From Novosphingobium decolorationis (lineage in GTDB: Bacteria > Pseudomonadota > Alphaproteobacteria > Sphingomonadales > Sphingomonadaceae): a DNA stretch of 64,000 nt. The position numbers and the translations under genes are program-made. The notes below the pieces were generated by a model. That model was not told the origin of the DNA, made no database searches, and saw only the letters and a program-made list of their open reading frames with translations. Positions within the stretch are counted from its first letter, which is position 1. The number at the start of each line of letters is the position of its first letter. Of this stretch, positions 5,162-43,900 are shown piece after piece. The stretch covers positions 2,759,001 through 2,823,000 of the forward strand of contig NZ_CP054856.1 of NCBI RefSeq assembly GCF_018417475.1, given 5' to 3'.

Positions 5162-5289
5162 GGAACATCCGAGGGCCATCGCCCTCGGGCTCCCCAAACT
5201 GTCTAGCGCCTGGGTGCCTGCAACGCCGATTGTGGGCGAGAGCATCGTATCCAGATGCACCATTGAGGGGCTTTGCCCCTCCTAATTCC
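5162..5289 (-). repeat. palindromic repeat, copy A1 (diverged, reverse orientation)
   Basis: The outer hairpin CCGAGGGCCATCGCCCTCGG sits at 5169-5188, followed by GCTCCCC and AAACTGTC. The middle has diverged, and the far end has GAGGGGC-TTT-GCCCCTC (5265-5281). Measured as for the other copies it is about 128 bp. It lies between the convergent genes dgt and sua5. Confidence 0.75.
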
Positions 5290-5344
5290 TGCACACCCAC
5301 TAACGGGTGCAAAACTGCGCCATCCCGCCCCAAATGCGCTCTCC

Positions 5345-5377
5345 GATTCCGGGAGCCCGAGGGCGATGGCCCTCGGA
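5345..5377 (+). repeat. palindromic repeat, half copy A2
   Basis: GATTCC, then GGGAGCC, then the hairpin CCGAGGGCGATGGCCCTCGG (5357-5376). This is only the second outer hairpin of the family. It lies 18 bases beyond the sua5 stop codon and may serve as its transcript end. Confidence 0.7.
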
Positions 5378-5395
5378 GAAATTTCGTCCGACCTC

Positions 5396-6343
5396 CTACG
5401 CCGCCGCGCGGCGCAACCGGTCGTTGATCGCCGCCCCAATCCCGGTCTCAGGCACGGGCGCGATGGCGATGCGGGGGGGGCTGGCGGCCGCGCCCTGATG
5501 CAGGAGCGCGTAGAGACGGCTCGCCGCCTCGTTGAGGTCGCCTGTGGGCGAAAGCGAGGCGTCACCCGCAACGGGACCGAAGCCGATATGGAATTCGTCG
5601 GCCTCGGCCGCCTCGGCATCGAGACGCACGGGCTTGCCGGGCGCGTAGTGACTGGCGAGCTGGCCGGGGGCCTCGATGGCTCGTGAGGTGACCGGATCGG
5701 GATCACAGCCCAGCACCTGAGCCAGCGTGTCGGCGGCGATGGGACCCGGCCGCAGGACCTGCCAGCGTCCCCCTTCGCGAAGGCCCACGATGGTCGATTC
5801 CAGGCCTGCCTCGCACGGACCACCGTCGATCACGGCATCGACGCGCGCGCCGAGTGAGGCGACCACGTGCGCCGCGCTGGTGGGGCTCACCCCGCCGCTG
5901 GCGTTGGCCGATGGGGCGGCGAGCGGCAGCCCCGTCTCGGCAATGACCGCGCGCATGACGGGATGCGCCGGGCAGCGCAGCGCCACCGTCGGCAGGCCCG
6001 CGGTCACGGCGGCCGCCACAGGAGCGCCCGCGCGCAAGGGGAGCACCAGGGTAAGCGGTCCTGGCCAGAACACCTCGGCAAGAGCTTTTGCCCGCGCATC
6101 GAGGGTCGCGATGGCCTGCGCGGCGGCGAGGTCCGCGACATGGACGATAAGCGGGTTGAAGCTGGGCCGCCCTTTCGCCGCATAGATGGCCGCAACGGAC
6201 TCATCCCGGTCGGCTCTGGCGGCCAGGCCATAGACCGTCTCGGTGGGCACCGCGACCAGACCGCCACTGCGCAGAATCTCGCCCGCCGCGGCAAGATCGG
6301 GCGAGGATGAAGTCAGAAGGCGGGGACGACTGGCGGGATTCAT
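5396..6343 (-). CDS. L-threonylcarbamoyladenylate synthase (Sua5 type)
   Basis: A 315-residue enzyme making threonylcarbamoyl-AMP from Thr, bicarbonate and ATP for the t6A37 tRNA modification. The YrdC domain (about residues 15-195) carries P-T-E-T-V-Y-G-L, the nucleotide-binding K-G-R-P, S-A-N-A-S-G and E-S-T-I-V. The extra C-terminal Sua5 domain (about 220-315, after the A-P-G-Q-L-A-S-H-Y-A-P-G linker) separates it from the short TsaC form. The ATG at 6343 is 54 bases from the divergent DUF815 gene, so the two share a short promoter gap. Confidence 0.93.
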   Translation of the reverse strand: MNPASRPRLLTSSSPDLAAAGEILRSGGLVAVPTETVYGLAARADRDESVAAIYAAKGRPSFNPLIVHVADLAAAQAIATLDARAKALAEVFWPGPLTLVLPLRAGAPVAAAVTAGLPTVALRCPAHPVMRAVIAETGLPLAAPSANASGGVSPTSAAHVVASLGARVDAVIDGGPCEAGLESTIVGLREGGRWQVLRPGPIAADTLAQVLGCDPDPVTSRAIEAPGQLASHYAPGKPVRLDAEAAEADEFHIGFGPVAGDASLSPTGDLNEAASRLYALLHQGAAASPPRIAIAPVPETGIGAAINDRLRRAAA

Positions 6344-6397
6344 ACCCTGCCGCTATAGCGCAGCGCAGCGAAAGCCAAGGAAAAGCGCAAGGAAGCC

Positions 6398-7243
6398 ATG
6401 ACCACACCGCTGCCCGAAACGGACACGCCCGCCCTTCTCTCCCGTATTGCCGATGCGCTCGAGCGCATCGCGCCGGCCCCCGTCCCCGCGACCGACTGGC
6501 TGGCCTTCCCCGCCTATGTCTGGAACGGCACCTCGGCACGCGGCGTAGCCCAGCTGGAGGCCCCCGCGCTCGACATGCTGCGCGGGATCGATGACCAGAA
6601 GGCCAGCGTCGTCACCAACGTGCTGCGTCTGGCCGCAGGCCATGCGGCGCACGACATGCTGCTGTGGGGCTCGCGCGGAATGGGCAAGTCCGCGCTTTTG
6701 CGCGCCGCGATCCGCAAGGGCCAGGCCGAACACAACGATGCCATCGCCCTCGTCCAGGTCGGTCAGGATGCGCTTGCCGGGGTGACGGATCTCTTTGCGA
6801 CTCTGGGGAAGATCGAGCGCCGCTTCCTCGTCTTCGTCGATGATCTGGGCTTTGAGGAGAACGATGGCGCAGGTCCGCGCCTCCTGCGCTCCTGGCTTGA
6901 AGGCGGGGTCGAGGCACGCCCGGCCAACGTCCGCCTTGCCGTCACCTCCAACCGCCGCGCCATCGTCTCACGCTCGATGCACGAACAGGACGATCCCATC
7001 AATCCGCGCGACGTCGTCGATGATCGCCTTGCTCTGGCGGACCGGTTCGGTCTCTCCATCGGATTCCACGCCTGCGACCAGGACGCCTATCTCGCCATCA
7101 TCGGCGGCTACGCACAGGAATTCGGACTGGAGTGGGACCAGGGCGATGCGCTGGAGTGGTCACGCCGGCGCGGCGCGCGTTCAGGCCGTGTGGCCTGGCA
7201 GTACGTCAACGAACTGGCAGGACGCGCGGGCAAGACCATCTGA
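6398..7243 (+). CDS. DUF815-family AAA+ ATPase
   Basis: A 281-residue predicted ATPase. The Walker A motif G-S-R-G-M-G-K-S-A-L-L lies near residue 88, and a Walker B-like L-V-F-V-D-D-L lies near 150. The N-terminal 80 residues are family-specific, and the core ends with a helical lid region containing A-D-R-F-G-L. Its substrate is unknown, although the family is common in alphaproteobacteria. It is divergent from sua5 and convergent with the dehydrogenase gene 24 bases on. There is no signal peptide, so it is cytoplasmic. Confidence 0.85.
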   Translation: MTTPLPETDTPALLSRIADALERIAPAPVPATDWLAFPAYVWNGTSARGVAQLEAPALDMLRGIDDQKASVVTNVLRLAAGHAAHDMLLWGSRGMGKSALLRAAIRKGQAEHNDAIALVQVGQDALAGVTDLFATLGKIERRFLVFVDDLGFEENDGAGPRLLRSWLEGGVEARPANVRLAVTSNRRAIVSRSMHEQDDPINPRDVVDDRLALADRFGLSIGFHACDQDAYLAIIGGYAQEFGLEWDQGDALEWSRRRGARSGRVAWQYVNELAGRAGKTI

Positions 7244-9828: not shown

Positions 9829-9839
9829 GGCAAGGACGA

Positions 9840-9966
9840 AGTGATTCAAGGGGCCATTGCCCCTTGACCCCGGAATCGGCAACCTCACCTCCTTCAGCCT
9901 CGTGGGCGCGCGAAAGATGAGCTCGACAGGTCGGGGAGCCCGAGGGCAATGGCCCTCGGAATCACT
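9840..9966 (+). repeat. palindromic repeat, copy B (127 bp)
   Basis: The ends AGTGATTC and GAATCACT are a perfect inverted repeat. Hairpin 1 is AAGGGGCCATTGCCCCTT, the centre has ACCTCACCT and GATGAGCTCGACAG, and hairpin 2 is CCGAGGGCAATGGCCCTCGG. It ends four bases from the parB stop, between convergent genes. Confidence 0.85.
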
Positions 9967-9970
9967 TTGT

Positions 9971-10960
9971 TCAAATCGCTCCGCCGGTCAGGCGCTGGCA
10001 CACGAGATCCAGCTGGTCGAGTGTCGCATACTTGATCGTCACGGTTCCCGAACGCGGGTCCTCATCGGACTGAATCTTGACCGGAAGGCCCAGGAATTCC
10101 TCAAGGTGATCCTGCACGGCAACGATATCGGCATCCTGCGCAGGATCGCGCGCCGGACGGGCGGCACGGCGCGGCGCCGGAGCGGTCTCACCGCGCATCT
10201 TCTTGCGCACGAGCTTTTCAACGTCACGCACCGACATCTGCGCCGAGACGGCCTGCCCCGCGATATCTTCGGCATCGTCGCAGCCGATCAGCGCGCGCGC
10301 ATGGCCCATCGACAGATCGCCCTTCTCGACGAGCCTGACCACATCGTCAGGCAGCGAAAGCAGGCGCTGGAAGTTGGCCACGTGGCTGCGGCTCTTGTCG
10401 ACCAGGCGCGCGATCTCGGCCTGCGTCATCCCCTCGGATTCGGACAGGCGCTGGTAGGCCCGGGCCTCTTCGATGGGGTTGAGATCCTCACGCTGGAGGT
10501 TCTCGATCAGCGCCAGCGCCATGACCTCGCGATCGGAAAGATCGCGAACCAGCGCCGGGATCTCGTGCAGCTGGGCTTTCTGCGCGGCGCGCCAGCGACG
10601 CTCGCCCGCCACAAGCTGGAACGCGCCGGTGTCGGTTGGGCGGACGATAATGGGCTGGATAACCCCACGCTGGGCGATCGAGGCCGCGAGTTCGTCCAGC
10701 GCCTCCTCATCGAAATGACGGCGCGGCTGTAGCGGGTCGGGCTTGATCTCGGCAATCGTCAGCGAGCGCAGGCCAAGGCCGCGTACCGCGTCTGGCCCGC
10801 TCCCTGCCGATGCCGACGCCAACGCTTCCCCTCCCCCGGATGCGACCACCGGTTCCTCGCGGCGGCTCTCGCCCAACAGAGCTCCGAGGCCACGGCCCAG
10901 GCCACGGGACTTCTGCCGCGTCATCGCCGGAGTGCTACGGGGGGCGGTGTCGTCGCTCAT
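9971..10960 (-). CDS. parB: chromosome partitioning protein ParB
   Basis: A 329-residue CTP-dependent DNA clamp that loads at parS and spreads. The N-terminal tail G-L-G-R-G-L-G-A-L-L-G contacts ParA. The N-domain carries L-Q-P-R-R-H-F-D-E-E-A-L-D-E-L-A, the CTPase block G-E-R-R-W-R-A-A is present, and the helix-turn-helix region has A-R-L-V-D-K-S-R-S-H-V-A-N. The C-terminal dimerisation domain ends in C-Q-R-L-T-G-G. The start M-S-D-D-T overlaps the parA stop in an ATGA. Five parS sites lie 0.8-7.6 kb away. Confidence 0.97.
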   Translation of the reverse strand: MSDDTAPRSTPAMTRQKSRGLGRGLGALLGESRREEPVVASGGGEALASASAGSGPDAVRGLGLRSLTIAEIKPDPLQPRRHFDEEALDELAASIAQRGVIQPIIVRPTDTGAFQLVAGERRWRAAQKAQLHEIPALVRDLSDREVMALALIENLQREDLNPIEEARAYQRLSESEGMTQAEIARLVDKSRSHVANFQRLLSLPDDVVRLVEKGDLSMGHARALIGCDDAEDIAGQAVSAQMSVRDVEKLVRKKMRGETAPAPRRAARPARDPAQDADIVAVQDHLEEFLGLPVKIQSDEDPRSGTVTIKYATLDQLDLVCQRLTGGAI

Positions 10961-11733: not shown

Positions 11734-12371
11734 GTGGTCTTTCCCTTCCTGCCGGACAGCGTTCCGACAATAATGCCTGCCTGCGGGTCCGTCAGGGACT
11801 GTTCCACGTGGAACACGTGCCGCCACTTGCGAAGGTCGTCCAATTCTTGCTGTGCCGAGCGCCCCTTGGGCAACACCCAGAGGGTGTCACTTGTGGAAAA
11901 TCGCGCGGATAACTCCAAAAGCTTCTGCAGGGGCGCAAAGGCGCGGGCCGAGATCACCGCAGCATCGCGCGATTCGACCTGTTCGAGACGTTGCCCGGCC
12001 ACGCGCGCCTTAGCCAGCCCCATCGCCTCGCGCGCGCGCTCCAGCCACTCGATTCGCCGTGCGCGCGATTCGACCATGATCACTTCACAGTCCGGCCGCA
12101 GCGCCGCAATGGCGAGACCCGGGAAGCCCGCTCCCGTACCAAGATCGAACCAGGGCCCCCGTGTTTCACGTGGAACATGGGTCAGCAACTGGGCCGAGTC
12201 GACGATATGCCGCAGCCAGACCTGCTCCAGGCTCGCGGCCGAAACCAGATTCTGGCGCTGGTTTTCCTCGGCCAGCATGGATACCAGACACTCGAGACGT
12301 TCCGCCGCCTCTGCATCGAATTCGGGCAGCGCTTCAAGCCAGGCACGCGCCTCGACTTCTGTGGTAATCAT
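11730..12371 (-). CDS. rsmG: 16S rRNA (guanine527-N7)-methyltransferase RsmG
   Basis: A 213-residue SAM methyltransferase (formerly GidB) modifying G527 of 16S rRNA. Motif I is [13 protein letters not shown], preceded by R-H-I-V-D-S-A-Q-L, with the conserved I-S-A-R-A-F-A-P-L and V-L-P-K-G later. It overlaps both mnmG (ATGA) and parA (GTGA). Two parS sites lie inside the gene, encoding H-V-P-R-E-T and H-V-F-H-V-E-Q, so the coding sequence carries centromere information as well. Confidence 0.96.
11800..11815. other. parS site 1 (inside rsmG)
   Basis: TGTTCCACGTGGAACA is a perfect 16-base palindrome close to the bacterial parS consensus TGTTTCACGTGAAACA, located near the 3' end of rsmG. Confidence 0.9.
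12162..12177. other. parS site 2 (inside rsmG)
   Basis: TGTTTCACGTGGAACA differs from the consensus at one base and lies in the middle of rsmG. Confidence 0.9.
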
Positions 12372-14230
12372 GCGGCCGATACCTCCCGACGCGCGCGAAC
12401 AAGAACAGCGGCAAGCGCCGCCGGGGTGATGCCCGGGATACGGCCCGCAGCCGCCAGTGTTGCCGGACGCGCCTTGGTCAGACGCTCGACCATTTCACGG
12501 GATAGACCAGGAATCTGGTCGTAGGGAAAATCATCGCCAAGGGGCAGTGCCTCACTCGCGCGCAGGTCCTTCAATTCGCGTTCCTGGCGTTCGAGATAAG
12601 GCGCATAGGCTGCGTCCTCGACAACTTCCTCAGCCAAGGCGGCATCGGCAAGCGGCGATGGCGCCCCATCCCTCTCCAGCCATGGCGCAAGTCGCTCCAG
12701 ATCGATTCCGTCAAACCGCAGCCATTCGCGCAAGGGCAGACGCCCCAGGTCCATGCGCACCGCCATTCCGGCCTGGGCAAGCTCACTGGCCGGAACCTGC
12801 TGATCGAGGCCCCTCTCCAGATCGGCGCGGGCCTCTTCACGCTGTGCGAACCAGGCCGCTCGCTCCCCGCCGACAGCCCCGACGCCAAGCGCCAGCGGCG
12901 TCAGACGTGTGCTGGCGTTGTTCGCGCGCAGACGCAGGCGATATTCGGCACGCGCCGTCAGCATGCGGTAGGGCTCGCTGACGCCATGCAAGGTGAGATC
13001 ATCGATCATCACCGCCATATAGCTGTTGGCCCGGTCGAGCGGGGCCGGCGCACGCTCCAGGATAGCCGCGGCGGCATGCATGCCGGCCACGAGCCCCTGG
13101 GCCGCAGCCTCTTCATAGCCCGTCGTCCCATTGATCTGGCCGGCGCAATAGAGCCCGGGCATTTCGCGCAGCTCCAAGCTCGGGCGTAGCGCGCGCGGAT
13201 CGATGTGATCGTATTCGACCGCATATCCCGGCACGACCATCTCGACGGTCTCCAGCCCTTCCATGCTGCGCATCATGGCCAGCTGGACATCGGTCGGCAG
13301 CGAGGTGCTGACACCGTTGGGATAGACCAGATGGGTCGAAAGCCCCTCCGGTTCAAGAAAGACCTGGTGCCCGTCGCGGTCGGCGAACCGGTGAATCTTG
13401 TCTTCGATGGAAGGGCAATAGCGCGGCCCCTGTGCACCAATGGCACCCGAGAACAGGGGCGAACGATCGAGGTTGGCGCGGATGATATCGTGAGTCTGCG
13501 GGTTGGTGCGCGTGATGGCGCAGAAGACCTGCGGAACCGTCCGCTGCCCCAGCGCGGACATCGTCCACGCGTCCGTATCGGAAGCCTGTTCCTCCAGACG
13601 CCCCCAGTCGATGGTTCGGCCATCGAGACGCGGCGGGGTGCCTGTCTTGAGCCGGGCCATCGGCAGGTTGGCCCCGCGCATCTGCTGCGCCAGCTTCTGC
13701 GCGGAAGCTTCCCCGATCCGGCCACCGACCAGTCGCTCCTCGCCGCGGAACAAGGTCCCGCCAAGGAAGGTGCCGGTGCACAGGATCGTGGCGGGCGCGC
13801 TCAGCAGGGTCCCATCGGCAAGGCGAATCCCGGCCACCCTTCCCTGCGCAAGGACCAGTTCGGCGGCCTCACCCGCGACCAGGGTGAGATCGCCCTGCTC
13901 CTTGAGCAGGCGATGGATCGCCGCCTTGAACAGGCGTCGGTCGGCCTGGATACGCGGCCCTTGCACCGCGCTGCCCTTCGAACGGTTGAGCATGCGGTAG
14001 TGAATCGCGGCCGCATCGGCGGCGCGTCCGATCAGGCCATCGAAGGCATCGACCTCGCGCACGAGGTGGCCTTTGCCGAGCCCCCCGATGGCCGGATTGC
14101 AACTCATCGCCCCGACCGCGTCGAGATCGAAACTGACGAGCGCCACGCGCGCGCCCATGCGCGCTGCCACGGCCGCGGCTTCACAACCGGCATGGCCGCC
14201 ACCGATCACGATGACATCAAAGGAATGCAT
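12368..14230 (-). CDS. mnmG: tRNA uridine-5-carboxymethylaminomethyl(34) synthesis enzyme MnmG
   Basis: A 620-residue FAD enzyme that works with MnmE to make cmnm5U34 in tRNAs. The FAD-binding motif [10 protein letters not shown] lies at residues 8-17, the signature [11 protein letters not shown] near 270 and the [16 protein letters not shown] block near 370. The C-terminal helical MnmE-binding region is intact. The ATG at 14230 gives [10 protein letters not shown], while an in-frame codon upstream would add 15 atypical residues. It heads the mnmG-rsmG-parA-parB run, with a parS in its leader gap. Confidence 0.96.
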
Positions 14231-14289
14231 GAGAACGCGCTTACTCCACCGCCCCTGCCCCGTCAAAGTTCCCATTGCATCACCCGTGG

Positions 14290-14305
14290 TGTTTCACGTG
14301 AAACA
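14290..14305. other. parS site 3 (between mnmG and mnmE)
   Basis: TGTTTCACGTGAAACA is an exact consensus palindrome and the only parS of the five that is intergenic. Confidence 0.95.
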
Positions 14306-14352
14306 TATGGACAAAGGCAATGAAGCGACTGAGCCCTGAAACCCTATGCCGA

Positions 14353-18459: not shown

Positions 18460-18473
18460 CCACAGGAATTGCC

Positions 18474-19465: not shown

Positions 19466-19566
19466 GGAAGTTCCGAGGGCCATCGCCCTCGGGCTCCCAA
19501 AACTGTCTGGCTCACCTTTCTCAGCCAAGGTAGCGCGCGGGAGGTGAGGTCGACAGTTTTGGAGCC
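19466..19566 (-). repeat. palindromic repeat, copy C (reverse, lacks one outer hairpin)
   Basis: CCGAGGGCCATCGCCCTCGG (19473-19492) is followed by CTCCCAAAACTGTC and CTCACCT. The right side mirrors this as GAGGTGAG and GACAGTTTTGGAG but stops at GCC without the second outer hairpin. It lies between the convergent quinone reductase and terC genes, next to a terminator. Confidence 0.75.
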
Positions 19567-32930: not shown

Positions 32931-32939
32931 GGACTGGCT

Positions 32940-33736: not shown

Positions 33737-33810
33737 GGCCGATCAGGTAGGAAGTACCAAGGCCCAGGTCCAGCCCCTGAAGGCGCTCTAGCCCTGCCCT
33801 ACTGGCCTGA

Positions 33811-34275: not shown

Positions 34276-34325
34276 CTCGTAAAAACCCTTAAAAAGCAGG
34301 CCCTCGAGTCGGGCGCGCGGTAGAT

Positions 34326-35780: not shown

Positions 35781-35782
35781 GG

Positions 35783-36382
35783 TCAGAAGCTCCAGCGCTT
35801 GGGCGCTGCGAATTCGGGAACGGCGGGAATGCCCTGCTCGTGGACGGGCAGGAGGGCCAGGTGGCCAGCCGTCTTGACGCCCACGGCGAGACGCGAGACG
35901 CCGCGCAGGATTTCCCCGGTGACCACGCGGCCTTCATCGTCCAGGCGGGCAACGAGCGCTTCGGGCAGTTCCTCGGCGGCGCCGTCGACCAGGATCAGGT
36001 CGTAGCCGCCCTGGCCGGCTTCGAGCGCCTGTGCCGGGGTGATCGTGTCGAACTCGGCGACGAGCGTGCGCAGCAGGGCGGCGTAGTAGCCATTGGCATC
36101 GCCCACCAGCAGGATCTTCTTCGCCTGGGTCGGGTCCGCCTCGGTCAGCGCGGCGCCGTAGAACAGCGGGGCGGCCAGGAAACGGCCTTCGCCCAGCGGC
36201 ACGGCGCGGTCGATGTAGGCGGCGTCCTTCCAGTCCGCGGGCACGAAGTCTTCACGCGCGACGCTCGCCATCGCGGTCAGAACCCAGGGTTCGTTGACGC
36301 CGCTGGTGCGCAGCTGGCTGGAGATCATCGCGCGGCGGGCTTCGTTCGGCGCGGTGGCGGACCGGTCCTCGGTCAGGGTCAT
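35783..36382 (-). CDS. protein-L-isoaspartate O-methyltransferase-like protein, degenerate SAM motif
   Basis: A 199-residue PCMT-family protein. The family front end is present (M-I-S-S-Q-L-R-T-S-G-V, A-R-E-D-F-V-P). The SAM motif I, normally V-L-E-I-G-T-G-S-G-Y, reads I-L-L-V-G-D-A-N-G-Y, so the acidic residue and two glycine-loop positions are lost. Isoaspartate repair activity is therefore doubtful. It lies directly upstream of tolC and popZ and may act with them. The ATG at 36382 was chosen over a longer frame. Confidence 0.8.
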   Translation of the reverse strand: MTLTEDRSATAPNEARRAMISSQLRTSGVNEPWVLTAMASVAREDFVPADWKDAAYIDRAVPLGEGRFLAAPLFYGAALTEADPTQAKKILLVGDANGYYAALLRTLVAEFDTITPAQALEAGQGGYDLILVDGAAEELPEALVARLDDEGRVVTGEILRGVSRLAVGVKTAGHLALLPVHEQGIPAVPEFAAPKRWSF

Positions 36383-36539
36383 CTGTTCACTATCCCTCAA
36401 GCAAGCGCGGCTGTCGGGCCTGATGGTCCCAGGCAGAAGATGCGCGCGGATAAGTCGGCTTTTGCAAAGCGCCTTCTAGGCCAAGGAGGCCTTCGGGCTC
36501 AAGTGCTTTGAACGGCACTGGTCGATCCATCTTGACGCT

Positions 36540-36568
36540 TTGACGATGGGGGGCACGCGGCCTATGGG
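36540..36568 (+). promoter_or_regulatory. candidate promoter of the fumarase gene
   Basis: TTGACG (36540-36545), 17 bases, TATGGG (36563-36568), 60 bases before the ATG. The -35 matches sigma70 at five of six positions. Confidence 0.5.
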
Positions 36569-36628
36569 AACTCGCAAAAGCACAACAGGTCCCAAGTCCG
36601 GGACCGCGCAACAGGAGCGTTTGATCCC

Positions 36629-38152
36629 ATGGCCGAAATGGTGACTATCCGCGAAGACGACCTGATCGAAAGTGTCGCCGACGCTCTCCAGTACATCAGC
36701 TACTACCATCCGATGGACTACATCCGCGCGCTGGGCGAGGCCTACGAGGCCGAGCAGGGCCCCGCCGCGAAGGACGCGATCGCGCAGATTCTCACCAATT
36801 CGCGCATGTGCGCCGAAGGCCACCGCCCGATCTGCCAGGACACCGGCATCGTCAACGTCTTCATCGAGTGGGGCCAGAACTGCCGCCTCGAGAGCGACCG
36901 CTCCTTGCAGGAAGTGGTCGATGAAGGCGTGCGCCGCGCTTACGGCAACAAGGAAAACAAGCTGCGCGCCTCGGTGCTGGCGGATCCGGCCTTCACCCGC
37001 CGCAACACCAAGGACAACACGCCTTCGGTGCTCTCGGTCTCGATGGTTCCGGGCAACAAGATCACCGTCGACGTGGCGGCCAAGGGCGGCGGCTCGGAAG
37101 CCAAGTCCAAGTTCAAGATGATGAACCCCAGCGACAACATCGTCGACTGGGTGCTCGAAATGCTGCCGCAGATGGGCGCGGGCTGGTGCCCGCCGGGCAT
37201 GCTGGGCATCGGCATCGGCGGCACCGCCGAGCACTGCGTCAAGCTTGCCAAGCAGAGCCTGATGGACCCGATCGACATGGGCCAGCTCAAGGCGCGCGGC
37301 CCCCAGAACGACATCGAGGCGCTGCGCATCGAGATCTTCGACAAGGTCAACGCGATGGGCATCGGCGCGCAGGGGCTGGGCGGCCTTGCCACCATCCTCG
37401 ACGTCAAGATCCTCGACTGGCCCTGCCACGCGGCGAACAAGCCGGTCGCGATGATCCCCAACTGCGCGGCGACCCGCCACGCGCACTTCACGCTGGACGG
37501 TTCGGGCCCGAGCTACCTCGAAAAGCCCAACCTCGCCGACTGGCCGCAGGTGGAATGGAAGCCGAGCAAGGAAGCCATCCGCGTCGATCTCGACACCCTC
37601 ACCCCCGAGGATGTGAAGAGCTGGAAGCAGGGTGACCGCCTGCTGCTGAACGGCAAGATGCTGACCGGACGTGACGCGGCCCACAAGCGCATCCAGGACA
37701 TGCTCGCCAAGGGCGAGGAACTGCCTGTCGATTTCAAGGGCCGCGTGATCTACTACGTGGGCCCCGTCGACCCGGTGCGCGACGAAGTCGTCGGCCCGGC
37801 TGGCCCGACCACCGCCACGCGCATGGACAAGTTCATGGACACCATGCTCGAGCAGGGCCTCCTGGCGTGCGTCGGTAAGGCCGAGCGCGGACCCGCCGCG
37901 ACCGAATCCATCGCCAAGCACGAATCCTCCTACCTCATGGCGGTTGGCGGTGCGGCCTACCTCGTGTCCCGCGCGATCAAGGAAGCCAAGGTCGTCGGCT
38001 TCGAGGACCTGGGCATGGAAGCGATCTACGAGTTCACCGTCGAGGATATGCCGGTGACCGTGGCGGTCGATTCCGAAGGCAAGAACGTCCACCAGCTCGC
38101 CCCGCTGGTGTGGCAGGAAAAGATCGCCAAGGAGCACCTGCTCGCCGACTGA
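36629..38152 (+). CDS. class I (iron-sulfur) fumarate hydratase
   Basis: A 507-residue [4Fe-4S] fumarase interconverting fumarate and malate in the TCA cycle. The cluster cysteines lie in P-I-C-Q-D-T-G near residue 72, G-W-C-P-P-G near 188 and P-N-C-A-A-T-R-H near 280, matching the FumA/FumB pattern. The C-terminal domain with G-P-A-G-P-T-T-A-T-R-M-D is intact. It is the oxygen-sensitive class, so a class II enzyme may exist elsewhere. Repeat copy E follows the stop. Confidence 0.95.
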   Translation: MAEMVTIREDDLIESVADALQYISYYHPMDYIRALGEAYEAEQGPAAKDAIAQILTNSRMCAEGHRPICQDTGIVNVFIEWGQNCRLESDRSLQEVVDEGVRRAYGNKENKLRASVLADPAFTRRNTKDNTPSVLSVSMVPGNKITVDVAAKGGGSEAKSKFKMMNPSDNIVDWVLEMLPQMGAGWCPPGMLGIGIGGTAEHCVKLAKQSLMDPIDMGQLKARGPQNDIEALRIEIFDKVNAMGIGAQGLGGLATILDVKILDWPCHAANKPVAMIPNCAATRHAHFTLDGSGPSYLEKPNLADWPQVEWKPSKEAIRVDLDTLTPEDVKSWKQGDRLLLNGKMLTGRDAAHKRIQDMLAKGEELPVDFKGRVIYYVGPVDPVRDEVVGPAGPTTATRMDKFMDTMLEQGLLACVGKAERGPAATESIAKHESSYLMAVGGAAYLVSRAIKEAKVVGFEDLGMEAIYEFTVEDMPVTVAVDSEGKNVHQLAPLVWQEKIAKEHLLAD

Positions 38153-38224
38153 GCGGGAGAACCTTTGCGAACCTGAAGACGGGCGGGCGGCGCAAGCTGA
38201 CCCGCCCGTTTTGCTGTCAGGGGC

Positions 38225-38351
38225 AAATATTCATGGGGCCATCGCCCCTTGACCCCAAAACGGTCTACCTCACCTTTCTCACGCAACGCGGCGTGCGCAA
38301 GGTGAGGTAGACAGTTCGGGGAGCCCGAGGGCGATGGCCCTCGGAACTCTA
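38225..38351 (+). repeat. palindromic repeat, copy E (127 bp)
   Basis: Hairpin 1 is GGGGCCATCGCCCC, the central stem uses ACCTCACCTT and AAGGTGAGGT, and hairpin 2 is CCGAGGGCGATGGCCCTCGG. The terminal inverted repeat is weak in this copy. It lies in the 309-base gap between fumarase and the kinase gene. The remaining part of the gap (38352-38461) shows no other feature. Confidence 0.85.
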
Positions 38352-38461
38352 TGACTTTCCGGCTTCTGCCGGACGATCCGCACACCTCTCGACAAAAAGC
38401 CATTGCGAACCGACCGGGGAACTGGCCTGATTGCACCTGCCGGGGCTAAGGCAGGGGAACA

Positions 38462-39880
38462 ATGGCCATCGTATCTGAAAATCCACGCGTTCCTGCGCGC
38501 ATGGTGCTGCTTTCGCTGGCAGCGCTCTGGGCGTGCTATTTCATCGTCGCGACCTTGCGCGGGGCCTTCATGGGCTTCGATTTCGCCTGGCCGATCATCT
38601 CGCGAAGGCTGACGATCTGTCTGCTCTCGATGATGGTCATGGCCGCGGTCTGGCCGCTGCTCCAGATGCTCGACCGCAAGTCGAACCTGGTGCGCCTGGT
38701 GATCGTGCTGGTGGGCGCCTTGCCGCTTGCCCTGCTGCTCAGTCTCATCAACGCAATGGTCTTTGCCGACCTGGAAATGGCGATGAAGACGGCCGACAAG
38801 GAAGGTCTGACCCAGATCGATCCGGGCAAGGTCCGCGTGATGCAGGATGAGGCGGGGAACATCCTTGTTGATCTGCCCAAGTCGTCCTCGCGCGAAACGG
38901 ACCAGCAGGAGGCGCCGCCCGCCCCTCCCGTCACGAGCTCGGCCGTGCCCGATGTCGTCCCCGGCATGAGCGATGATGCAGGACCGCTGCTGGACGATAC
39001 CGGCCGGGGCCCTGCGTCGGCGGGTATCATGCCCGGCGCGGAAGGGGGGATTACCATCCGCACCAACGGCGGCGCGCGTGACACCCTGTTCGGGCGCTGG
39101 GCGGGCATGGCCGACACGACCTTCGGGCGCTACTTCCTCGTCCTGGCCTGGGCCGCACTCTATTTCGCGCTCGCCAAGGCGGAAGAGGCGCGCGCGGCCG
39201 AGCGGCGCGAGGGCGAGTACCGCCGCGCCGCCGAAGCGGCCGAGCTGCGCTCGCTGCGCTACCAGGTCAATCCGCACTTCCTGTTCAATACGCTGAACTC
39301 GCTCTCCGCGCTGGTCATGACCGGGCGCCAGGAGGCGGCCGAGACGATGATCCAGACGCTCTCGACCTTCTACCGCCGCACGCTGAACGGCGATCCCACC
39401 AACGACATGCGCCTGCTGGATGAGATCGAGATGCAGAAGCTCTACCTCTCGATCGAGGGGGTACGTTTCCCTAATCGTTTGCAGACTCACTTCACGATTG
39501 ACGAGGACGTCGCCGATGCGATGGTACCGGGCATGATCCTGCAGCCGCTGGTCGAGAACTCGGTGAAGTACGCGGTCGCGGCCACGCAGCGTCCGGTCAC
39601 GATCACGATCTCGGCCCGGCGCGGCGAAGGGGAAGACGGTGAGGCCGATCGCCTTGTGCTCACCGTGTGCGACGATGGCCCCGGCGTGCCCTTGAACAAG
39701 GCCGACGGGTGCGGCATCGGATTGACCAACGTGCGCGATCGCTTGCGCGCGCGCTACGCGAATACGGCCAGGCTGGCCTACGGTCCGCAGGAGGAGGGGG
39801 GCTTTGCGACCGTCCTCGACCTGCCGCTGGAGACCGAACAGGGAGCAGCCGGGGCGAGGGAGACGAGATTTGACGGATAG
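38462..39880 (+). CDS. LytS-like sensor histidine kinase
   Basis: A 472-residue sensor kinase of the His_kinase/HATPase pair (LytS/YehU type). Membrane segments lie near residues 14-35, 51-70, 78-102 and 222-240. A Pro/Asp-rich loop of about 110 residues between the third and fourth is the likely sensor part. The phospho-accepting His lies in Y-Q-V-N-P-H-F-L-F-N-T-L near residue 272, and the ATP site has L-V-E-N-S-V-K-Y and D-D-G-P-G-V. Its stop overlaps or abuts the response regulator start, so they are one operon. Confidence 0.9.
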   Translation: MAIVSENPRVPARMVLLSLAALWACYFIVATLRGAFMGFDFAWPIISRRLTICLLSMMVMAAVWPLLQMLDRKSNLVRLVIVLVGALPLALLLSLINAMVFADLEMAMKTADKEGLTQIDPGKVRVMQDEAGNILVDLPKSSSRETDQQEAPPAPPVTSSAVPDVVPGMSDDAGPLLDDTGRGPASAGIMPGAEGGITIRTNGGARDTLFGRWAGMADTTFGRYFLVLAWAALYFALAKAEEARAAERREGEYRRAAEAAELRSLRYQVNPHFLFNTLNSLSALVMTGRQEAAETMIQTLSTFYRRTLNGDPTNDMRLLDEIEMQKLYLSIEGVRFPNRLQTHFTIDEDVADAMVPGMILQPLVENSVKYAVAATQRPVTITISARRGEGEDGEADRLVLTVCDDGPGVPLNKADGCGIGLTNVRDRLRARYANTARLAYGPQEEGGFATVLDLPLETEQGAAGARETRFDG

Positions 39881-39887
39881 CAACGCC

Positions 39888-40640
39888 ATGCCGAATGGTG
39901 CCAACGACACCGTGACCAGTGCGCCGCTGCGCACCCTGATCGTGGACGACGAGCCGCTGGCGGTGGAGCGCATGCAGGTGATCTGCTCGCGGCTGGGTTC
40001 GGTCTCGGTGGTCGGCACGGCCAGCGATGGCGAGGCCGCGCTGCGCCTGTGCGAGGCGCTGCATCCCGATCTTCTGCTGCTCGATCTCACCATGCCCGAG
40101 ACCGATGGACTGACCGTCGCGCGGCGTCTGGCGCGCCAGGACAATGCGCCCGCGGTGATCTTCGTCACCGCGCACGACGAATTCGCGGTCGAGGCCTTCG
40201 ATCTCGACGCGGTGGACTATGTCCTCAAGCCCGTGACGCCCGAGCGGCTGGAACGCGCGATCGGGCGCGTCATTGCCCGGCGCGGCGAACGCACCGAGCC
40301 CAGGAGCGACTGGCTGGAGGAATTCTGGGTGCCGCACCGCTCCGAACTGGTGCGCGTGCCCGCCGACGATGTGCAGCGCATCGATGCCGAGCGTGACTAC
40401 GTGCGCCTCCACGTGGGCGAGCAGAGCTATCTCCTGCTCCAGACCATCACCAGCCTGCAGGAGCGGCTCGACCCGGCGCGCTTCATTCGCATCCACCGCA
40501 GCCACATCCTGCGCCGCGACCACGTGACCGGCCTCAAGCACGAGGGCCTGGGCGTGTGGTCGGTCGAAACGACGAGCGGTGACAGCCTGCGCATCGGGCG
40601 CACGTACCTGCCCGAGGTGAAGAAGATGGCGGGGCGCTGA
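39888..40640 (+). CDS. LytTR-family response regulator
   Basis: A 250-residue regulator. The receiver domain (about residues 15-130) shows L-I-V-D-D-E-P-L-A, the phospho-Asp in L-L-L-D-L-T-M-P, F-V-T-A-H-D and D-Y-V-L-K-P-V-T-P. The LytTR DNA-binding domain (about 148-248) has V-P-A-D-D-V-Q-R-I-D-A-E-R-D-Y-V and F-I-R-I-H-R-S-H-I. ATG 39888 was used. A TTG at 39870 has the better Shine-Dalgarno (AGGGAG) and would overlap the kinase stop, so the true start may be six codons earlier. Repeat copy F follows. Confidence 0.9.
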   Translation: MPNGANDTVTSAPLRTLIVDDEPLAVERMQVICSRLGSVSVVGTASDGEAALRLCEALHPDLLLLDLTMPETDGLTVARRLARQDNAPAVIFVTAHDEFAVEAFDLDAVDYVLKPVTPERLERAIGRVIARRGERTEPRSDWLEEFWVPHRSELVRVPADDVQRIDAERDYVRLHVGEQSYLLLQTITSLQERLDPARFIRIHRSHILRRDHVTGLKHEGLGVWSVETTSGDSLRIGRTYLPEVKKMAGR

Positions 40641-40661
40641 TCCTGGGCTCAGGAAGAAGGT

Positions 40662-40788
40662 ATTGATTCAACGGGCCATCGCCCCTTGACCCCAGAACGG
40701 GCGACCTCATTTCTCTCAGATACCGTCGCGTGTGTGAGGTGAGGTCGACAGTTTTGGGAGCCCGAGAGCGATGGCCCTCGGAAATCTC
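40662..40788 (+). repeat. palindromic repeat, copy F (127 bp)
   Basis: The ends are ATTGATTC and GAAATCTC. Hairpin 1 is CGGGCCATCGCCCC, with CAGAACGGGCGACCTCA on the left and GAGGTCGACAGTTTTGGG on the right of the centre. Hairpin 2 is CCGAGAGCGATGGCCCTCGG. It lies between the convergent regulator and UrcA genes. Confidence 0.85.
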
Positions 40789-40891
40789 TCTTTTCCTGTA
40801 CCCCGCACACACAAAGAGGCGGGCCGCCAGAGGCAGCCCACCAAGTCGGTATCCGGGTCATTTCTTCTTATGGGACCTCGGGGATGGGGGA

Positions 40892-41233
40892 TCAGCCGCC
40901 GTAGCGCTGGGCCTTTTCCTGGTCGCGCATGGCGGCCGCGATCTGGCCGTCGACCTTCTCGGTGGCCTTGCGGTAGCAGGCCTGCGACGAGGAGCTGGGC
41001 AGGAAGGAGTCGACCGCGCGTTCGTCCATCCGGCAAACCTTGCGGGCCGTCTTCACGAGGCGGCGCTCCAGGGTCTCCTGGCCTTCGACCGTGCTGAGGT
41101 CGAGGTCGGTGTAGTAGACGGTCGCGGTGGGGATGCTTTCCTGCGCAGCGGCGGGAGTGGCGGTAGCGGCGAGGCCGACCATGGCAGCGGGACCAACAAG
41201 GGCAGCGGCGAAAAGGGCAGTCTTCGTGAACAT
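40892..41233 (-). CDS. UrcA family secreted protein
   Basis: A 113-residue protein with a Sec signal (M-F-T-K-T-A-L-F-A-A-A-L-V-G, cleavage after A-A-A near residue 30). The mature part starts Q-E-S-I-P-T-A-T-V-Y-Y-T-D-L-D-L and has two cysteines (V-C-R-M and A-C-Y-R-K) likely to form a disulfide, the pattern of UrcA proteins in sphingomonads. The function is unknown. A very good AGGAGG lies before the ATG, which indicates strong translation. Confidence 0.85.
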   Translation of the reverse strand: MFTKTALFAAALVGPAAMVGLAATATPAAAQESIPTATVYYTDLDLSTVEGQETLERRLVKTARKVCRMDERAVDSFLPSSSSQACYRKATEKVDGQIAAAMRDQEKAQRYGG

Positions 41234-41549
41234 CGTGTTTCCTCCTATGGTGAGCAGGTCCGCGATGTGTGTGTCGGCCGGCTCGTTGAGTTTCTTCTGC
41301 ACCCATCCCGGCCCCCCTTCACGCGGGCATCTATGGTGGGTCGTCCAAGGTCGACCAAAGGCAAGGGCAGCGGACAAACGACGTTTGTAGTCGACGAACG
41401 GCATGGGCCGGAGCCCGCGCAAATGCGGGGATGCCTGCGCAAGGCGGCGACTCGCAGGACCTGATTCGCAAGGGGCGTGCAGGGCCCCGGTGCAGGCCCC
41501 CATGCAGGGGGATTGGCATCGGGGCGCAAGCCGCGTTAGGCTGCGCGAT
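41234..41549. other. 316-base gap upstream of the UrcA gene
   Basis: The stretch between the UrcA start and the next plus-strand gene contains no ORF with coding-like composition, no terminator and no copy of the 127-bp repeat. It should hold the UrcA promoter (minus strand), but no clear -35/-10 pair could be picked. Confidence 0.4.
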
Positions 41550-41822
41550 GTGACCATTGCCGTTCTCGTCGTCTTCTGTCTGGGCGTGATCAACTTCGCC
41601 GCCCACAAGGCCGTCCTGGAAAGCGGGCATCCCATGCTCGCGCAGGTCCCCTGGCTGCTGAAGTCGCTGGGCGGGCGGGCCAGTCTTATCGTCGAGTTCG
41701 TGATGCTGCTGGGCGCGCTGCTGATGGTCTCGGCCGGATCGCAGGGCTGGGCGCTGCTCTACCTTGTCTATTCGCTCGTCAACGGCGTTGCCGCCTGGCT
41801 GATTGTCACCGAGCGTCTGTAG
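41550..41822 (+). CDS. small three-helix membrane protein
   Basis: A 90-residue protein starting with GTG (V-T-I-A-V-L-V-V-F-C-L-G). Three hydrophobic stretches lie at about residues 2-18, 43-62 and 66-85. No family is recognised. The GTG is favoured because the frame upstream is Arg-rich and unlike a protein. It lies 38 bases before the lipid-kinase-like gene on the same strand, so they may be co-transcribed. Confidence in the start is low. Confidence 0.55.
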   Translation: MTIAVLVVFCLGVINFAAHKAVLESGHPMLAQVPWLLKSLGGRASLIVEFVMLLGALLMVSAGSQGWALLYLVYSLVNGVAAWLIVTERL

Positions 41823-41860
41823 GTCGGGAACCGGGGGGCGTACGGGGCTTTTCGCCAAGC

Positions 41861-42772
41861 ATGGAACAGGCATCGCAGACACCCGCCGACGTAGCGCAAC
41901 CCGACGATTCAACGCCCGGCGGCGCAAAGGCGCGGCGTCTCTGGCTGGTGTGCAATCCGGCAAGCGGCAGCAACGACGCGCAGACCCAGCGCGAGGCGAA
42001 GCAGGCTCTGGAGTCCGCGGGCTTCGATGTCGCGCGCACGTTGTACTTCCCCGATGATCCCGCGCCCAAGGCGGCGGATCTGGATGAGGAAGGGGTCGAG
42101 GTTGTCGCCACGTTCGGCGGCGATGGCACGGTCCATGCGGTCGTCACGGGCCTGTTCGGCTGGGGCGGTGCGGTCCTGGTCCTGCCGGGCGGCACGATGA
42201 ATCTCCTCGCCAAAACGCTGCACGGCCCGGCCAGCGCGGACGAGATCGCCGCGCGTCTTGAAAGCGGGGAAGGGCGCCGCGTGCGCACGCCTGTCATCGA
42301 CACCCGGCACGGAACCGCGCTGACCGGCGTGCTTGCGGGGCCGGGCACGATCTGGAACGAGGTGCGGGAGGCTTTGCGCGATGCGAACCTGATCGAGGTG
42401 GTCGCCACCGCGCGCCAGGCCATCAGCTATTCCACCAACGGGCCCAAGGTCGTGTGTGACCAGAGCGATTGCGGGCGCGAGGACGGCTATGCGGCGATCA
42501 CCGTCAATCCGGGCGAGGAGGGTCTGTCCGCCCGTGGTTACTACGCAGAATCGCTGGCCGACTATGCGGGGCAGGGGATTGCGCTGCTCAACCGCGACTT
42601 CCGCAATGGGCCGCACGATGATCTTGGCGTCCACCAGCGTATCCGTCTCGTCTGCCCGGCGGGCGAGCCGATGGGCCTGCTCATCGACGGCGAACCCTTT
42701 GATGGCGAGCCCGAGGAAATATTCGAGCTTGCACCCTGCGAGGTCGATCTTATTGCCACGCGCGAGGTATAG
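41861..42772 (+). CDS. diacylglycerol kinase-family protein
   Basis: A 303-residue DAGK-catalytic-domain protein (YegS-like lipid kinase fold). The nucleotide-binding block V-A-T-F-G-G-D-G-T-V-H-A-V lies near residue 82, and L-V-L-P-G-G-T-M-N-L-L-A-K near 108. N-P-A-S-G-S near 32 is also typical. The lipid or other substrate is unknown. There is no membrane segment. It is followed after 71 bases by a phosphoesterase gene, and the two may share an operon. Confidence 0.9.
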   Translation: MEQASQTPADVAQPDDSTPGGAKARRLWLVCNPASGSNDAQTQREAKQALESAGFDVARTLYFPDDPAPKAADLDEEGVEVVATFGGDGTVHAVVTGLFGWGGAVLVLPGGTMNLLAKTLHGPASADEIAARLESGEGRRVRTPVIDTRHGTALTGVLAGPGTIWNEVREALRDANLIEVVATARQAISYSTNGPKVVCDQSDCGREDGYAAITVNPGEEGLSARGYYAESLADYAGQGIALLNRDFRNGPHDDLGVHQRIRLVCPAGEPMGLLIDGEPFDGEPEEIFELAPCEVDLIATREV

Positions 42773-42843
42773 GGCGTGAAGGCGAGTTCCTTCGCGCCGG
42801 GGCGAAATGGCCCGAAACGCAGACTCAACGCAGGTGAAAGTGC

Positions 42844-43710
42844 ATGAATGACCGCCCGCTCAAGCTGTTTCATCTGAGCGATATCCACTTCGGGCTCGAG
42901 GACCGCAGCGCCCTCGCCTGGGTCGAGCGTTGCATCGAGCGCGAAAAGCCCGATGCCCTTGCCATCACCGGCGACCTCACCATGCGCGCGCGCCACCGCG
43001 AGTTCGATGCGGCCTGTGCGTGGATTCAGGGGCTGGACCTTCCCGTCACCGTCGAGGTGGGCAACCACGATATCCCCTACGCCAATCTCTACCAGCGCTT
43101 CTTCGATCCCTACCGCCGCTTCAACCGGATCGAGCATCTGGTCGAGGCCGAACTGGGCCTGCCGCGTCTTGCCGTGATCCCGCTCAAGACGACCACGCGC
43201 GCGCAGTGGCAGCGCTTTCCCTGGTCGAACGGCTGGGTGACGAAGAAGGCGCTGGAGGAAACGCTGGCCGCGATCGACGCGCAGCCCGAAGGCACGCGTA
43301 TCCTCATCGCCGCGCACCACCCGCTGACCGAGCGGCGCGAACATGACAACAAGCTGCTGACCATCAACGGCACCCGCACGATGGAAGCGCTGGCGGGGCG
43401 CAAGGTCGCCGCGATCCTTTCGGGCCACATCCACGATCCCTTCGACCTCGTCGCGGAGACGAAGGCAGGCCCGCTGCGGATGATCGGCGCGGGCACGCTC
43501 TCGCAGCGCATCCGTTCGACCCCGCCCAGCTTCAACGAGATCGTGATCGAGGGCGAGGACATTCGGGTCACCGCGCGCAACCTGGAAGACGTGGCAAGCC
43601 GCGACATGATGATCTGCGACGTGCCCGAGAACGCGCTGCCCCCGCGCGATCCCGAAGAGCCGGTGGCGCCCGTGGGCAGGGTGCCCGAAGTCGATCCGCC
43701 GGTAAGCTGA
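42844..43710 (+). CDS. calcineurin-like metallophosphoesterase
   Basis: A 288-residue metallophosphoesterase. All five motifs are visible: L-S-D-I-H-F-G (residue 10), T-G-D-L-T, V-G-N-H-D, A-H-H-P-L and G-H-I-H-D. It resembles Icc-type cyclic-nucleotide phosphodiesterases, but the substrate cannot be read from sequence. Cytosolic, no signal. A perfect 18-bp terminator stem follows, then repeat copy G. Confidence 0.9.
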   Translation: MNDRPLKLFHLSDIHFGLEDRSALAWVERCIEREKPDALAITGDLTMRARHREFDAACAWIQGLDLPVTVEVGNHDIPYANLYQRFFDPYRRFNRIEHLVEAELGLPRLAVIPLKTTTRAQWQRFPWSNGWVTKKALEETLAAIDAQPEGTRILIAAHHPLTERREHDNKLLTINGTRTMEALAGRKVAAILSGHIHDPFDLVAETKAGPLRMIGAGTLSQRIRSTPPSFNEIVIEGEDIRVTARNLEDVASRDMMICDVPENALPPRDPEEPVAPVGRVPEVDPPVS

Positions 43711-43717
43711 TCTGCAC

Positions 43718-43757
43718 ATACGAAAAGAGCCGCAGTTTCCTGCGGCTCTTTTCGTAT
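43718..43757. terminator. terminator after the phosphoesterase gene
   Basis: ATACGAAAAGAGCCGCAG and CTGCGGCTCTTTTCGTAT form a perfect 18-bp stem with a TTTC loop and an internal T-run. It can act on both strands. Confidence 0.92.
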
Positions 43758-43773
43758 ATAGTTGTTTAGAAAG

Positions 43774-43900
43774 AACAGATCCGAGGGCCATTGCCCTCGG
43801 GCTCCCCGAACTGTCGACCTCACCTTCTGCGCGCCACCTGGGCTGTGAAGGGTGAGGTCGCCCATTCTGGGGTCAAGGGGCAATAGCCCCTTGAGAATCC
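43774..43900 (-). repeat. palindromic repeat, copy G (127 bp, reverse)
   Basis: Read left to right on the plus strand: CCGAGGGCCATTGCCCTCGG, GCTCCCCGAACTGTCGACCT, then the mirrored GGGTGAGGTCGCCC and TCTGGGGTC, and AAGGGGCAATAGCCCCTT. It ends six bases from the stop of the DUF2807 gene, between convergent genes. Confidence 0.85.

What the first reader, a model, noticed from the sequence alone, without database searches (positions are those of the whole stretch)
5162..43900. A family of 127-bp palindromic intergenic elements with fixed length and variable middle
Copies at 9840-9966, 32454-32580, 38225-38351, 40662-40788 and 43774-43900 all measure 127 bp when cut at the same hairpin-relative borders, although their middles differ. 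Diverged or partial copies lie at 5162-5289, 5345-5377 and 19466-19566. Each has an outer hairpin AAGGGGC-n-GCCCCTT, a long central inverted repeat (CAGAACTGTCGACCTCACCTT and its mirror), and an outer hairpin CCGAGGGC-n-GCCCTCGG; two copies close with the inverted ends AGTGATTC/GAATCAYT. Compensated changes (copy D, GTTATTAC for GCCATTGC) suggest that structure is kept. They look like a non-autonomous mobile palindrome (MITE or REP-like) that I cannot name.
Basis: seen in the sequence. Interest (0 to 1): 0.8.

Follow-up and report, generated by a model that had tools for sequence, protein, structure and literature searches.

The report
Frozen paired-palindrome repeats in Novosphingobium
Over a hundred DNA repeats of almost one length, each made of two small palindromes facing each other, sit just past gene ends in a Novosphingobium bacterium; they belong to a known kind of repeat (REP pairs), but here they seem to have stopped moving while their two ends are preserved in place, which suggests that the cell uses them.

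Summary
In detail: five equal-length copies, one diverged copy, one truncated copy and one lone unit lie in the window, and the matches are not chance. Each copy is two 20-nt GC hairpins in inverted orientation with an interior of nearly fixed length: of 268 full copies in three species 204 have a 114-nt core, 254 lie within 113-115.

They are REP dimers, a known kind. No PF01797 (RAYT) hit in five carrier genomes.

The new part is how they evolve. All 44 full own copies in 447 kb are occupied in EaN21-2, and all 26 with syntenic flanks in BW1. At these sites hairpins differ by 2.6%, the interior by 16.6%, the flanks by 16.0%, four-fold sites by 14.4% (own/EaN21-2), and interior indels are eight-fold rarer than flank indels. 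Hairpins and spacing thus seem kept by selection without movement. Copies hug gene 3' ends. Function (RNA 3'-end boundary, or paired DNA site) is inferred. The central palindrome shows little or no compensatory evolution.

The parts
9847..9960 (+). full copy, 114-nt core (left hairpin 9847-9866, right hairpin 9940-9959)
   Evidence: model match 9837-9970, 123.9 bits
32461..32574 (+). full copy with the GGGGTTATTACCCC left hairpin; in a divergent gap by my gene calls; at its site F72 has a diverged copy and N. organovorum a left hairpin (both read by eye)
   Evidence: 123.7 bits
38232..38345 (+). full copy, downstream of a canonical terminator (by eye) that follows a fumarase-type gene
   Evidence: (146.3 bits)
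40669..40782 (+). full copy between convergent genes; 25 nt on each side identical to EaN21-2 but 22 of 114 core bases differ
   Evidence: 133.9 bits
43780..43893 (-). full copy in reverse orientation between convergent genes, beside a canonical terminator at 43718-43757
   Evidence: 141.9 bits
5162..5289 (-). diverged copy, reverse orientation (right hairpin 5169-5188, degenerate left hairpin 5265-5281 by eye)
5353..5376 (+). lone right-hand unit (tag plus hairpin) in the same convergent gap
19466..19566 (-). truncated copy: right hairpin and interior, left hairpin missing; canonical terminator alongside (by eye)
9830..9846 (+). example of the purine-rich left flank (the pyrimidine-rich right flank begins at 9961)

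Best explanation
A clade-specific family of REP dimers: two related GC hairpins (read outward, a GGTC-tagged left unit and a GGAGC-tagged right unit) in inverted orientation at a nearly fixed distance. Shown: nearly all copies examined were in place before this genome, EaN21-2 and BW1 split and have stayed at the same sites; the two hairpins, and the distance between them, are kept in place while the interior drifts at about the neutral rate. Inferred: the transposase that spread them has been lost or was supplied in trans, and the host now keeps the dimer because it works at the 3' end of transcription units. Most likely the transcript folds into two strong hairpins just after the stop codon, followed by a pyrimidine-rich stretch, and so sets or protects the mRNA 3' end from either side of convergent gene pairs.
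For: At least 150 model matches, full copies nearly all of one length. Orthologous occupancy: 42 full plus 2 partial of 44 own full copies in EaN21-2; 21 full plus 5 partial of the 26 with syntenic flanks in BW1 (18 without); 24 of 24 BW1 full copies in own. Own/EaN21-2, 41 pairs: hairpins 43/1638 substitutions, interior 502/3031, 15-nt flanks 193/1208; indel events 8 in 3031 interior and 25 in 1208 flank positions; four-fold sites 9334/64690. BW1, 21 pairs: 66/821, 347/1532, 142/615. Left-hairpin T-A variants are inherited at their sites. Context, own genome, n=126 full copies: 68 convergent, 46 tandem, 7 divergent, 5 at a region edge, 0 inside genes; own plus EaN21-2: median 23 nt from stops in convergent gaps, and in tandem gaps 27 nt from the upstream stop against 155 from the next start. 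In the 447-kb region 24 full copies fall in the 37 convergent gaps of 120 nt or more and 20 in the 159 others (Fisher p 3e-10). Left-hairpin covariation.
Against: In tandem contexts the hairpin at the downstream end is not better kept (19/454 changes) than that at the upstream end (11/459), and the purine/pyrimidine tracts are on both sides whatever the gene orientation; a plain terminator predicts asymmetry. Three window copies sit beside a canonical terminator (by eye; one also). My crude scan scores a terminator elsewhere in 28 of 121 element-bearing gaps, about its background (14 of 61 element-free divergent gaps), and scores the element itself in only 56 of 121; convergent gaps without an element score 6 of 13 against 18 of 68 with one (p 0.19). 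In BW1 hairpin indels (8 in 821) are no rarer than interior indels (13 in 1532). The first base of the right loop (G/A) is not inherited by site (7 of 9 variable own/EaN21-2 sites discordant). No expression data were available.
Confidence: 0.5

Rival explanations
1. The dimer works as DNA: a protein binds the two 20-bp palindromes, about 93-94 bp apart centre to centre (roughly nine helical turns), as gyrase or IHF do at E. coli BIMEs (recalled).
For: Both hairpins about equally constrained whatever the gene orientation; the sequence, not only the pairing, is kept (right hairpin pairing 98-99% with no covariation); distance kept; copies are concentrated near parB (52 of 150 within 0.29 Mb, 18.75 expected).
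Against: Only 12 of 236 full copies (own plus EaN21-2; 14 of the 236 unclassified at region edges) are in divergent gaps, which a pure DNA site would not need to avoid; no binding protein identified; density near parB may only reflect old core genome.
Confidence: 0.28
2. A neutral relic: former mobile repeats without present function, tolerated because 3' intergenic DNA is free.
For: Preference for 3' ends is expected from tolerance alone; the central palindrome shows little or no compensation; 50 partial hits beside 126 full ones in own; in F72 and N. organovorum 12 of 16 and 4 of 8 syntenic sites show no copy or relic.
Against: At the same sites hairpins change six times (EaN21-2) or nearly three times (BW1) less than the interior (p 4e-55, 2e-20), which drift alone does not give.
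Confidence: 0.12
3. Still an active REPIN or MITE, moved at low rate by a transposase not recognised here.
For: Anatomy is that of a REPIN: conserved ends, interior conserved mainly in length (PMC3116915, passages). One orthologous pair of 42 is flipped in orientation. Two EaN21-2 full copies and one shorter hit (104 bits) have no element at the own site.
Against: No own full copy lacks its counterpart where flanks are syntenic; the two EaN21-2 copies look like a deletion in own; the nearest own paralogue differs at 8 or more of 114 bases in all 34 copies tested; no PF01797 hit in five carriers.
Confidence: 0.08
4. Copies exchange sequence by gene conversion, which helps to keep the hairpins alike.
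For: Summed donor-tract statistic 140 against 131.8 (sd 4.5) in simulations, with 1 of 34 pairs clearly above. The orthologue is the nearest copy in only 23 of 42 (EaN21-2) and 6 of 21 (BW1) cases. One orthologous pair differs in loop direction, and the EaN21-2 copy's loop matches that of another copy about 3.5 kb away at 24 of 26 bases by eye. Right-loop base not inherited by site.
Against: 33 of 34 pairs do not exceed the simulation clearly; no left-hairpin T-A site in own is C-G in EaN21-2 or the reverse (41 pairs); the interior rate is close to flank and four-fold rates, so no import is needed.
Confidence: 0.07

Closest known systems
REP dimers of the CGTC superfamily in alpha-Proteobacteria (Di Nocera et al. 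2013, PMC3733652; passages and sections 14 and 15 read; author name recalled)
   Same: 8-9 bp stems, 4-5 nt loops, mostly head-to-head dimers, in some families mainly heterodimers, spacers often conserved in sequence or length; no dedicated transposase; mostly in convergent and unidirectional gaps, convergent ones mostly <20 bp from both 3' ends in Sphingomonas wittichii. The paper names families in N. aromaticivorans and S. wittichii.
   Different: Tags here are GGTC and GGAGC, not CGTC; the right unit does not start with A-T pairs; the tail is not CCA. The paper's consensus sequences are in a figure that is not held, so identity with its families could not be checked.
REPINs with RAYT transposases (Bertels and Rainey 2011, PMC3116915; outline and passages read)
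   Same: Inverted REP doublets, ends most conserved, interior kept mainly in length.
   Different: No PF01797 hit in the carriers; two unlike ends; little or no compensation in the interior, whereas that paper calls it common; positions shared across species, whereas it reports very dissimilar REP complements in two related strains.
BIMEs of Escherichia coli (recalled)
   Same: Two unlike palindromic units in inverted orientation, extragenic, at gene 3' ends.
   Different: No sequence comparison was made.
ERIC / RU-1, 127-bp enterobacterial intergenic repeat (PMC2759123; search listing and abstract start only)
   Same: Length of 127 bp, intergenic; that RU-1 is ERIC and palindromic is recalled.
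   Different: Other bacteria; no sequence comparison made; the equal length is probably coincidence, since the conserved core here is 114.

Membership tests
REP dimer (general) | short GC palindromes in many extragenic copies, paired in inverted orientation | tested here: met
REP dimer (general) | located mainly in convergent or unidirectional gaps, near 3' ends | tested here: met
   (own: 68 and 46 of 126; 7 divergent, 5 at an edge)
CGTC REP superfamily | CGTC tag (or TGTC, CCTC) at the head | tested here: not met
   left unit GGTC, right unit GGAGC
CGTC REP superfamily | 8-9 bp stem, 4-5 nt loop, first two stem pairs A-T | tested here: inconclusive
   stem 8 and loop 4 in both units; an A-T start only in the left unit, and only if its stem is counted as seven pairs from AAGGGGC
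CGTC REP superfamily | no associated transposase gene | tested here: met
   0 of 5 carriers with PF01797 at E 0.001; 20 RAYT-like loci of other Novosphingobium: no right-hand unit by model R2 up to E=1
REPIN | cognate RAYT in the same genome | tested here: not met
   the control rang in 5 of 14 genomes
REPIN | inverted doublet, ends conserved, interior conserved in length | tested here: met
MITE | terminal inverted repeats with target-site duplication and an autonomous relative | tested here: inconclusive
   ends only imperfectly inverted; relatives without a copy are too diverged to show a duplication; autonomous relative not found
Intrinsic terminator | GC hairpin directly followed by a T-run | tested here: inconclusive
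   56 of 121 element regions scored on at least one strand; 2 of 8 hairpin ends of the four full copies in 30000-46000 pass the simple scan
Intrinsic terminator | polarity follows the gene | tested here: not met
   tracts on both sides irrespective of gene orientation; downstream hairpin not better kept
Rfam RNA family | match above gathering score | tested here: not met
   0 matches in the window; 7 matches in 38100-44000, all below gathering, best STnc40 33.8 bits against 45
ERIC | sequence similarity to the ERIC consensus | not tested
   consensus not compared in any call

The most novel reading that the evidence does not exclude
A former mobile REP dimer has been taken over by its host as a standard part: after transposition stopped, purifying selection at more than a hundred fixed sites keeps two palindromes and the distance between them (about nine helical turns) while the DNA in between is free to drift. 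This would be a genome-wide paired-site system placed at gene 3' ends, maintained by the cell and not by the element's own replication.
Probability: 0.45. Interest if true: 0.6.

Novelty: new member of a known kind. Interest (0 to 1): 0.42.

Why it matters
Whether REP repeats are selfish passengers or cell parts is an old question. Conservation among copies within one genome can come from replication of good copies. Here three species share the same sites, so conservation in place can be measured directly and separated from movement: hairpins and spacing are kept, the rest drifts. That makes the question testable in one group of bacteria without the confusion of ongoing transposition.

Tried and rejected
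Loop inversion as the general cause of the variable middle: rejected, but it is not absent. Among 92 copies from the syntenic stretches none had a flipped loop; among all 204 copies with a 114-nt core 10 score better inverted, 8 of them clearly and 2 doubtfully, and one orthologous pair differs in loop direction (11 of 26 direct, 21 of 26 inverted), by inversion in place or by conversion from a near copy. Because of this I raised the odds of the gene-conversion rival from 0.05 to 0.07; no other odds changed. Hypermutation of the centre: not needed, since the interior rate equals that of the flanks and is close to that of four-fold sites. Another comparison made other intergenic DNA look slower (6.4%) and the middle 24 nt faster (22%), but that intergenic class mixes promoters and missed genes and covers only what BLAST aligned. 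Gene conversion: weak at most. RAYT partner: 62 of 195 Novosphingobium genomes have a PF01797 hit; many of the strongest look like IS200/IS605 by their length (my reading); 20 loci with longer frames were fetched as RAYT-like and none carries the element (profile, E up to 0.001) or its right-hand unit. Target duplications: relatives too diverged. Rfam: nothing above gathering. Phage collection: no match; plasmid collection: one record.

Weak points: gene calls are from my own simple finder; the 'full copy' criterion favours full-length hits, so the length statistic is partly circular, which is why the orthologue indel comparison carries the argument; purine tracts in the flanks may be indel-prone; counts for other genomes can include one palindrome hit on both strands and are capped; one search keeps one copy per identical sequence.
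Full report
What is there. The window lies at C1:2759001-2823000 of a 4.75-Mb, two-contig Novosphingobium genome. BLAST with the 38225 copy lists 43 distinct places, with only 40 of 234 candidates scored. A covariance model R1 built from 31 copies finds 150 matches, the list limit, all on C1. Genes are 94.9% identical to EaN21-2 and 93.1% to BW1; F72 and N. organovorum align at about 72-84% over an 18-kb stretch. EaN21-2 and BW1 also reach the limit of 150 matches; F72 has 35 and N. organovorum 89, one palindrome sometimes counted on both strands. In other genera of the order 0 of 16 genomes match (stricter filters). Across 195 genomes of the genus 76 have at least one match; most of those listed outside this clade are weak, many spanning 170-200 nt, so related dimers of other lengths probably exist.

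Anatomy. Outward from the centre the ends read alike: GGGGTC-AAGGGGC-GATG-GCCCCTT-GA and GGGGAGC-CCGAGGGC-GATG-GCCCTCGG-A. Between them lies an imperfect palindrome (GACCTCACC...GGTGAGGTC) with a 26-nt variable loop. Single copies fold into either three hairpins or one long one. Of 268 full copies read in own, EaN21-2 and BW1, 204 have a 114-nt core and 254 lie within 113-115. Outside the hairpins is a purine-rich tract on the left and a pyrimidine-rich tract on the right.

Structure. Left-hairpin pairing exceeds all 500 shuffles in own and in EaN21-2 because its closing pair switches from C-G (140) to T-A (32 of 186). The right hairpin hardly varies. Central-stem pairing is no better than shuffles in own (183/500) and only marginally in EaN21-2 (46/500). 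In the first alignment (31 copies, whole structure) paired cells were not clearly above shuffles (50/500), two-sided changes were (9 cells against a mean of 4.4, 6/500).

No clear movement within the clade. In 447 kb of own against EaN21-2 contig 6 and BW1 contig 79, all 44 full own copies are occupied in EaN21-2 (42 full, 2 partial), and all 26 with syntenic flanks in BW1 are occupied (21 full, 5 partial; 18 had no syntenic match in the stretch held). In reverse, 45 of 48 EaN21-2 full copies are occupied in own, one had no syntenic match, and two form a pair missing in own; all 24 BW1 full copies are occupied in own. Among hits not classed as full, one EaN21-2 hit (104 bits) lacks an element in own, and two weak own hits and one weak EaN21-2 hit lack one in BW1. 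The missing pair looks like a deletion between two right hairpins: own keeps a single hairpin at the junction. One pair of orthologues is in flipped orientation.

Older history. Of 16 full own copies with syntenic flanks in F72, 2 sites give a profile hit, 2 more show a relic by eye and 12 show nothing; of 8 in N. organovorum, 2, 2 and 4 (some of these alignments are rough). Gain in this clade and loss in the others cannot be told apart site by site, but the contrast with full sharing inside the clade suggests amplification followed by arrest.

Constraint in place. For 41 own/EaN21-2 pairs substitutions are 25/819 (left hairpin), 18/819 (right), 502/3031 (interior), 95/603 and 98/605 (flanks); indel events are 2, 2, 8, and 25 in both flanks. 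For 21 BW1 pairs: 33/418, 33/403, 347/1532, 62/312, 80/303; indels 3, 5, 13, and 24. Hairpin against interior p=4e-55 and 2e-20; interior against flank indels p=2e-8 and 8e-6. Four-fold sites differ by 14.4% and 19.2%. So the interior is about neutral in substitutions, the hairpins are six times (EaN21-2) or nearly three times (BW1) slower, and the distance is kept better than in the flanks (eight-fold and about five-fold fewer indels per base). Per kb, interior indels (2.6, own/EaN21-2) are about half those of other intergenic DNA (5.0), so the larger contrast depends partly on indel-prone purine tracts. The left-hairpin T-A variants are inherited by site (4 T-A in both species, 2 near-variants, no switch to or from C-G in 41 pairs), but the first base of the right loop is not (7 of 9 variable sites discordant).

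Context. A simple gene finder gives, for 126 full own copies, 68 convergent, 46 tandem, 7 divergent, 5 at a region edge and 0 inside genes. In the contiguous region 24 fall in the 37 convergent gaps of 120 nt or more and 20 in the 159 others (p 3e-10). In convergent gaps stops lie a median of 23 nt from the core. The tracts do not follow gene orientation (tandem: downstream side T 0.47, upstream side 0.44), and in tandem contexts downstream and upstream hairpins are similarly kept (19/454, 11/459). By eye, canonical terminators stand beside the copies at 19466, 38225 and 43774 in this genome, and terminators stand at the same places in F72. A crude scan scores one elsewhere in 28 of 121 element-bearing gaps, close to its background of 14 of 61 element-free divergent gaps; element-free convergent gaps score 6 of 13 against 18 of 68 with an element (p 0.19). 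So the elements are not simply the terminators, although at many sites no other was seen and they may act as weak ones.

What it is. Anatomy, location and lack of a transposase match the REP dimers described for alpha-Proteobacteria in PMC3733652 (passages and sections 14 and 15 read), which places most convergent REPs within 20 bp of both 3' ends in S. wittichii and reports that CGTC REPs lack a transposase. The tags differ, so I do not file the family under CGTC. That the interior of REPINs is kept mainly in length was noted in PMC3116915 (passages read), from copies within one genome. The rows listed by searches name no paper on this Novosphingobium family in title or abstract start; only open-licence papers were searched and only part of each result was listed. 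PMC12306157 and PMC8049555 were looked at in passages only.

Mechanism. I favour an RNA boundary at mRNA 3' ends (strong hairpins just after the stop, covariation in one hairpin, scarcity in divergent gaps), with a DNA-level paired-site model as the main rival (symmetric constraint, kept distance, sequence kept beyond pairing). Neither is shown; what is shown is constraint in place without clear movement.

Noticed in passing
window 9971-10960 and 11800-18539: A parB gene (ParB_N, HTH_ParB, ParB_C) lies beside five parS-like sites (two exact, three with 1-2 mismatches; 0 in shuffles), so the window is probably close to the replication origin.
   Followed up: partly
own genome C1 (positions): The 150 listed copies are unevenly spread: 52 lie within 0.29 Mb of parB (18.75 expected), few on the far side, with a second cluster at 1.25-1.75 Mb.
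   Followed up: partly
L004 1494-2134 (C1:1417085-1417725): Four copies in direct tandem with a 169-bp period; EaN21-2 has two copies with the same spacing at its orthologous place (L036).
   Followed up: no
EaN21-2 contig 6, 151567-152094: Two facing copies with about 270 bp between them are missing in this genome, where one 20-bp hairpin remains: looks like a deletion between palindromic ends.
   Followed up: partly
L062 1961-2091 (EaN21-2) against L258 1504-1632 (own): Orthologous copies whose 26-nt loops run in opposite directions; 8 of 204 copies clearly carry the loop inverted relative to their hairpins.
   Followed up: partly
G000:C1:1616046-1618103: Three weaker matches (62-68 bits) spaced 968-969 bp apart, perhaps a larger tandem repeat that contains a diverged element.
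   Followed up: no
L355 (plasmid AP026900.1 of Novosphingobium sp. MBES04): A copy on a 256-kb plasmid next to a gene annotated as nuclease SbcCD subunit D; the only plasmid record with a match.
   Followed up: no
L183, L184, L185: Other Novosphingobium species carry a related unit, GGGAGCGCGAGGG-n-CCCTCGCAT, followed by pyrimidine-rich DNA; model R2 counts 1 to 27 units in six genomes besides this one and N. organovorum, of 40 searched.
   Followed up: partly
window 43718-43757: Strong canonical terminator (18-pair stem) directly beside the 43774 copy.
   Followed up: yes
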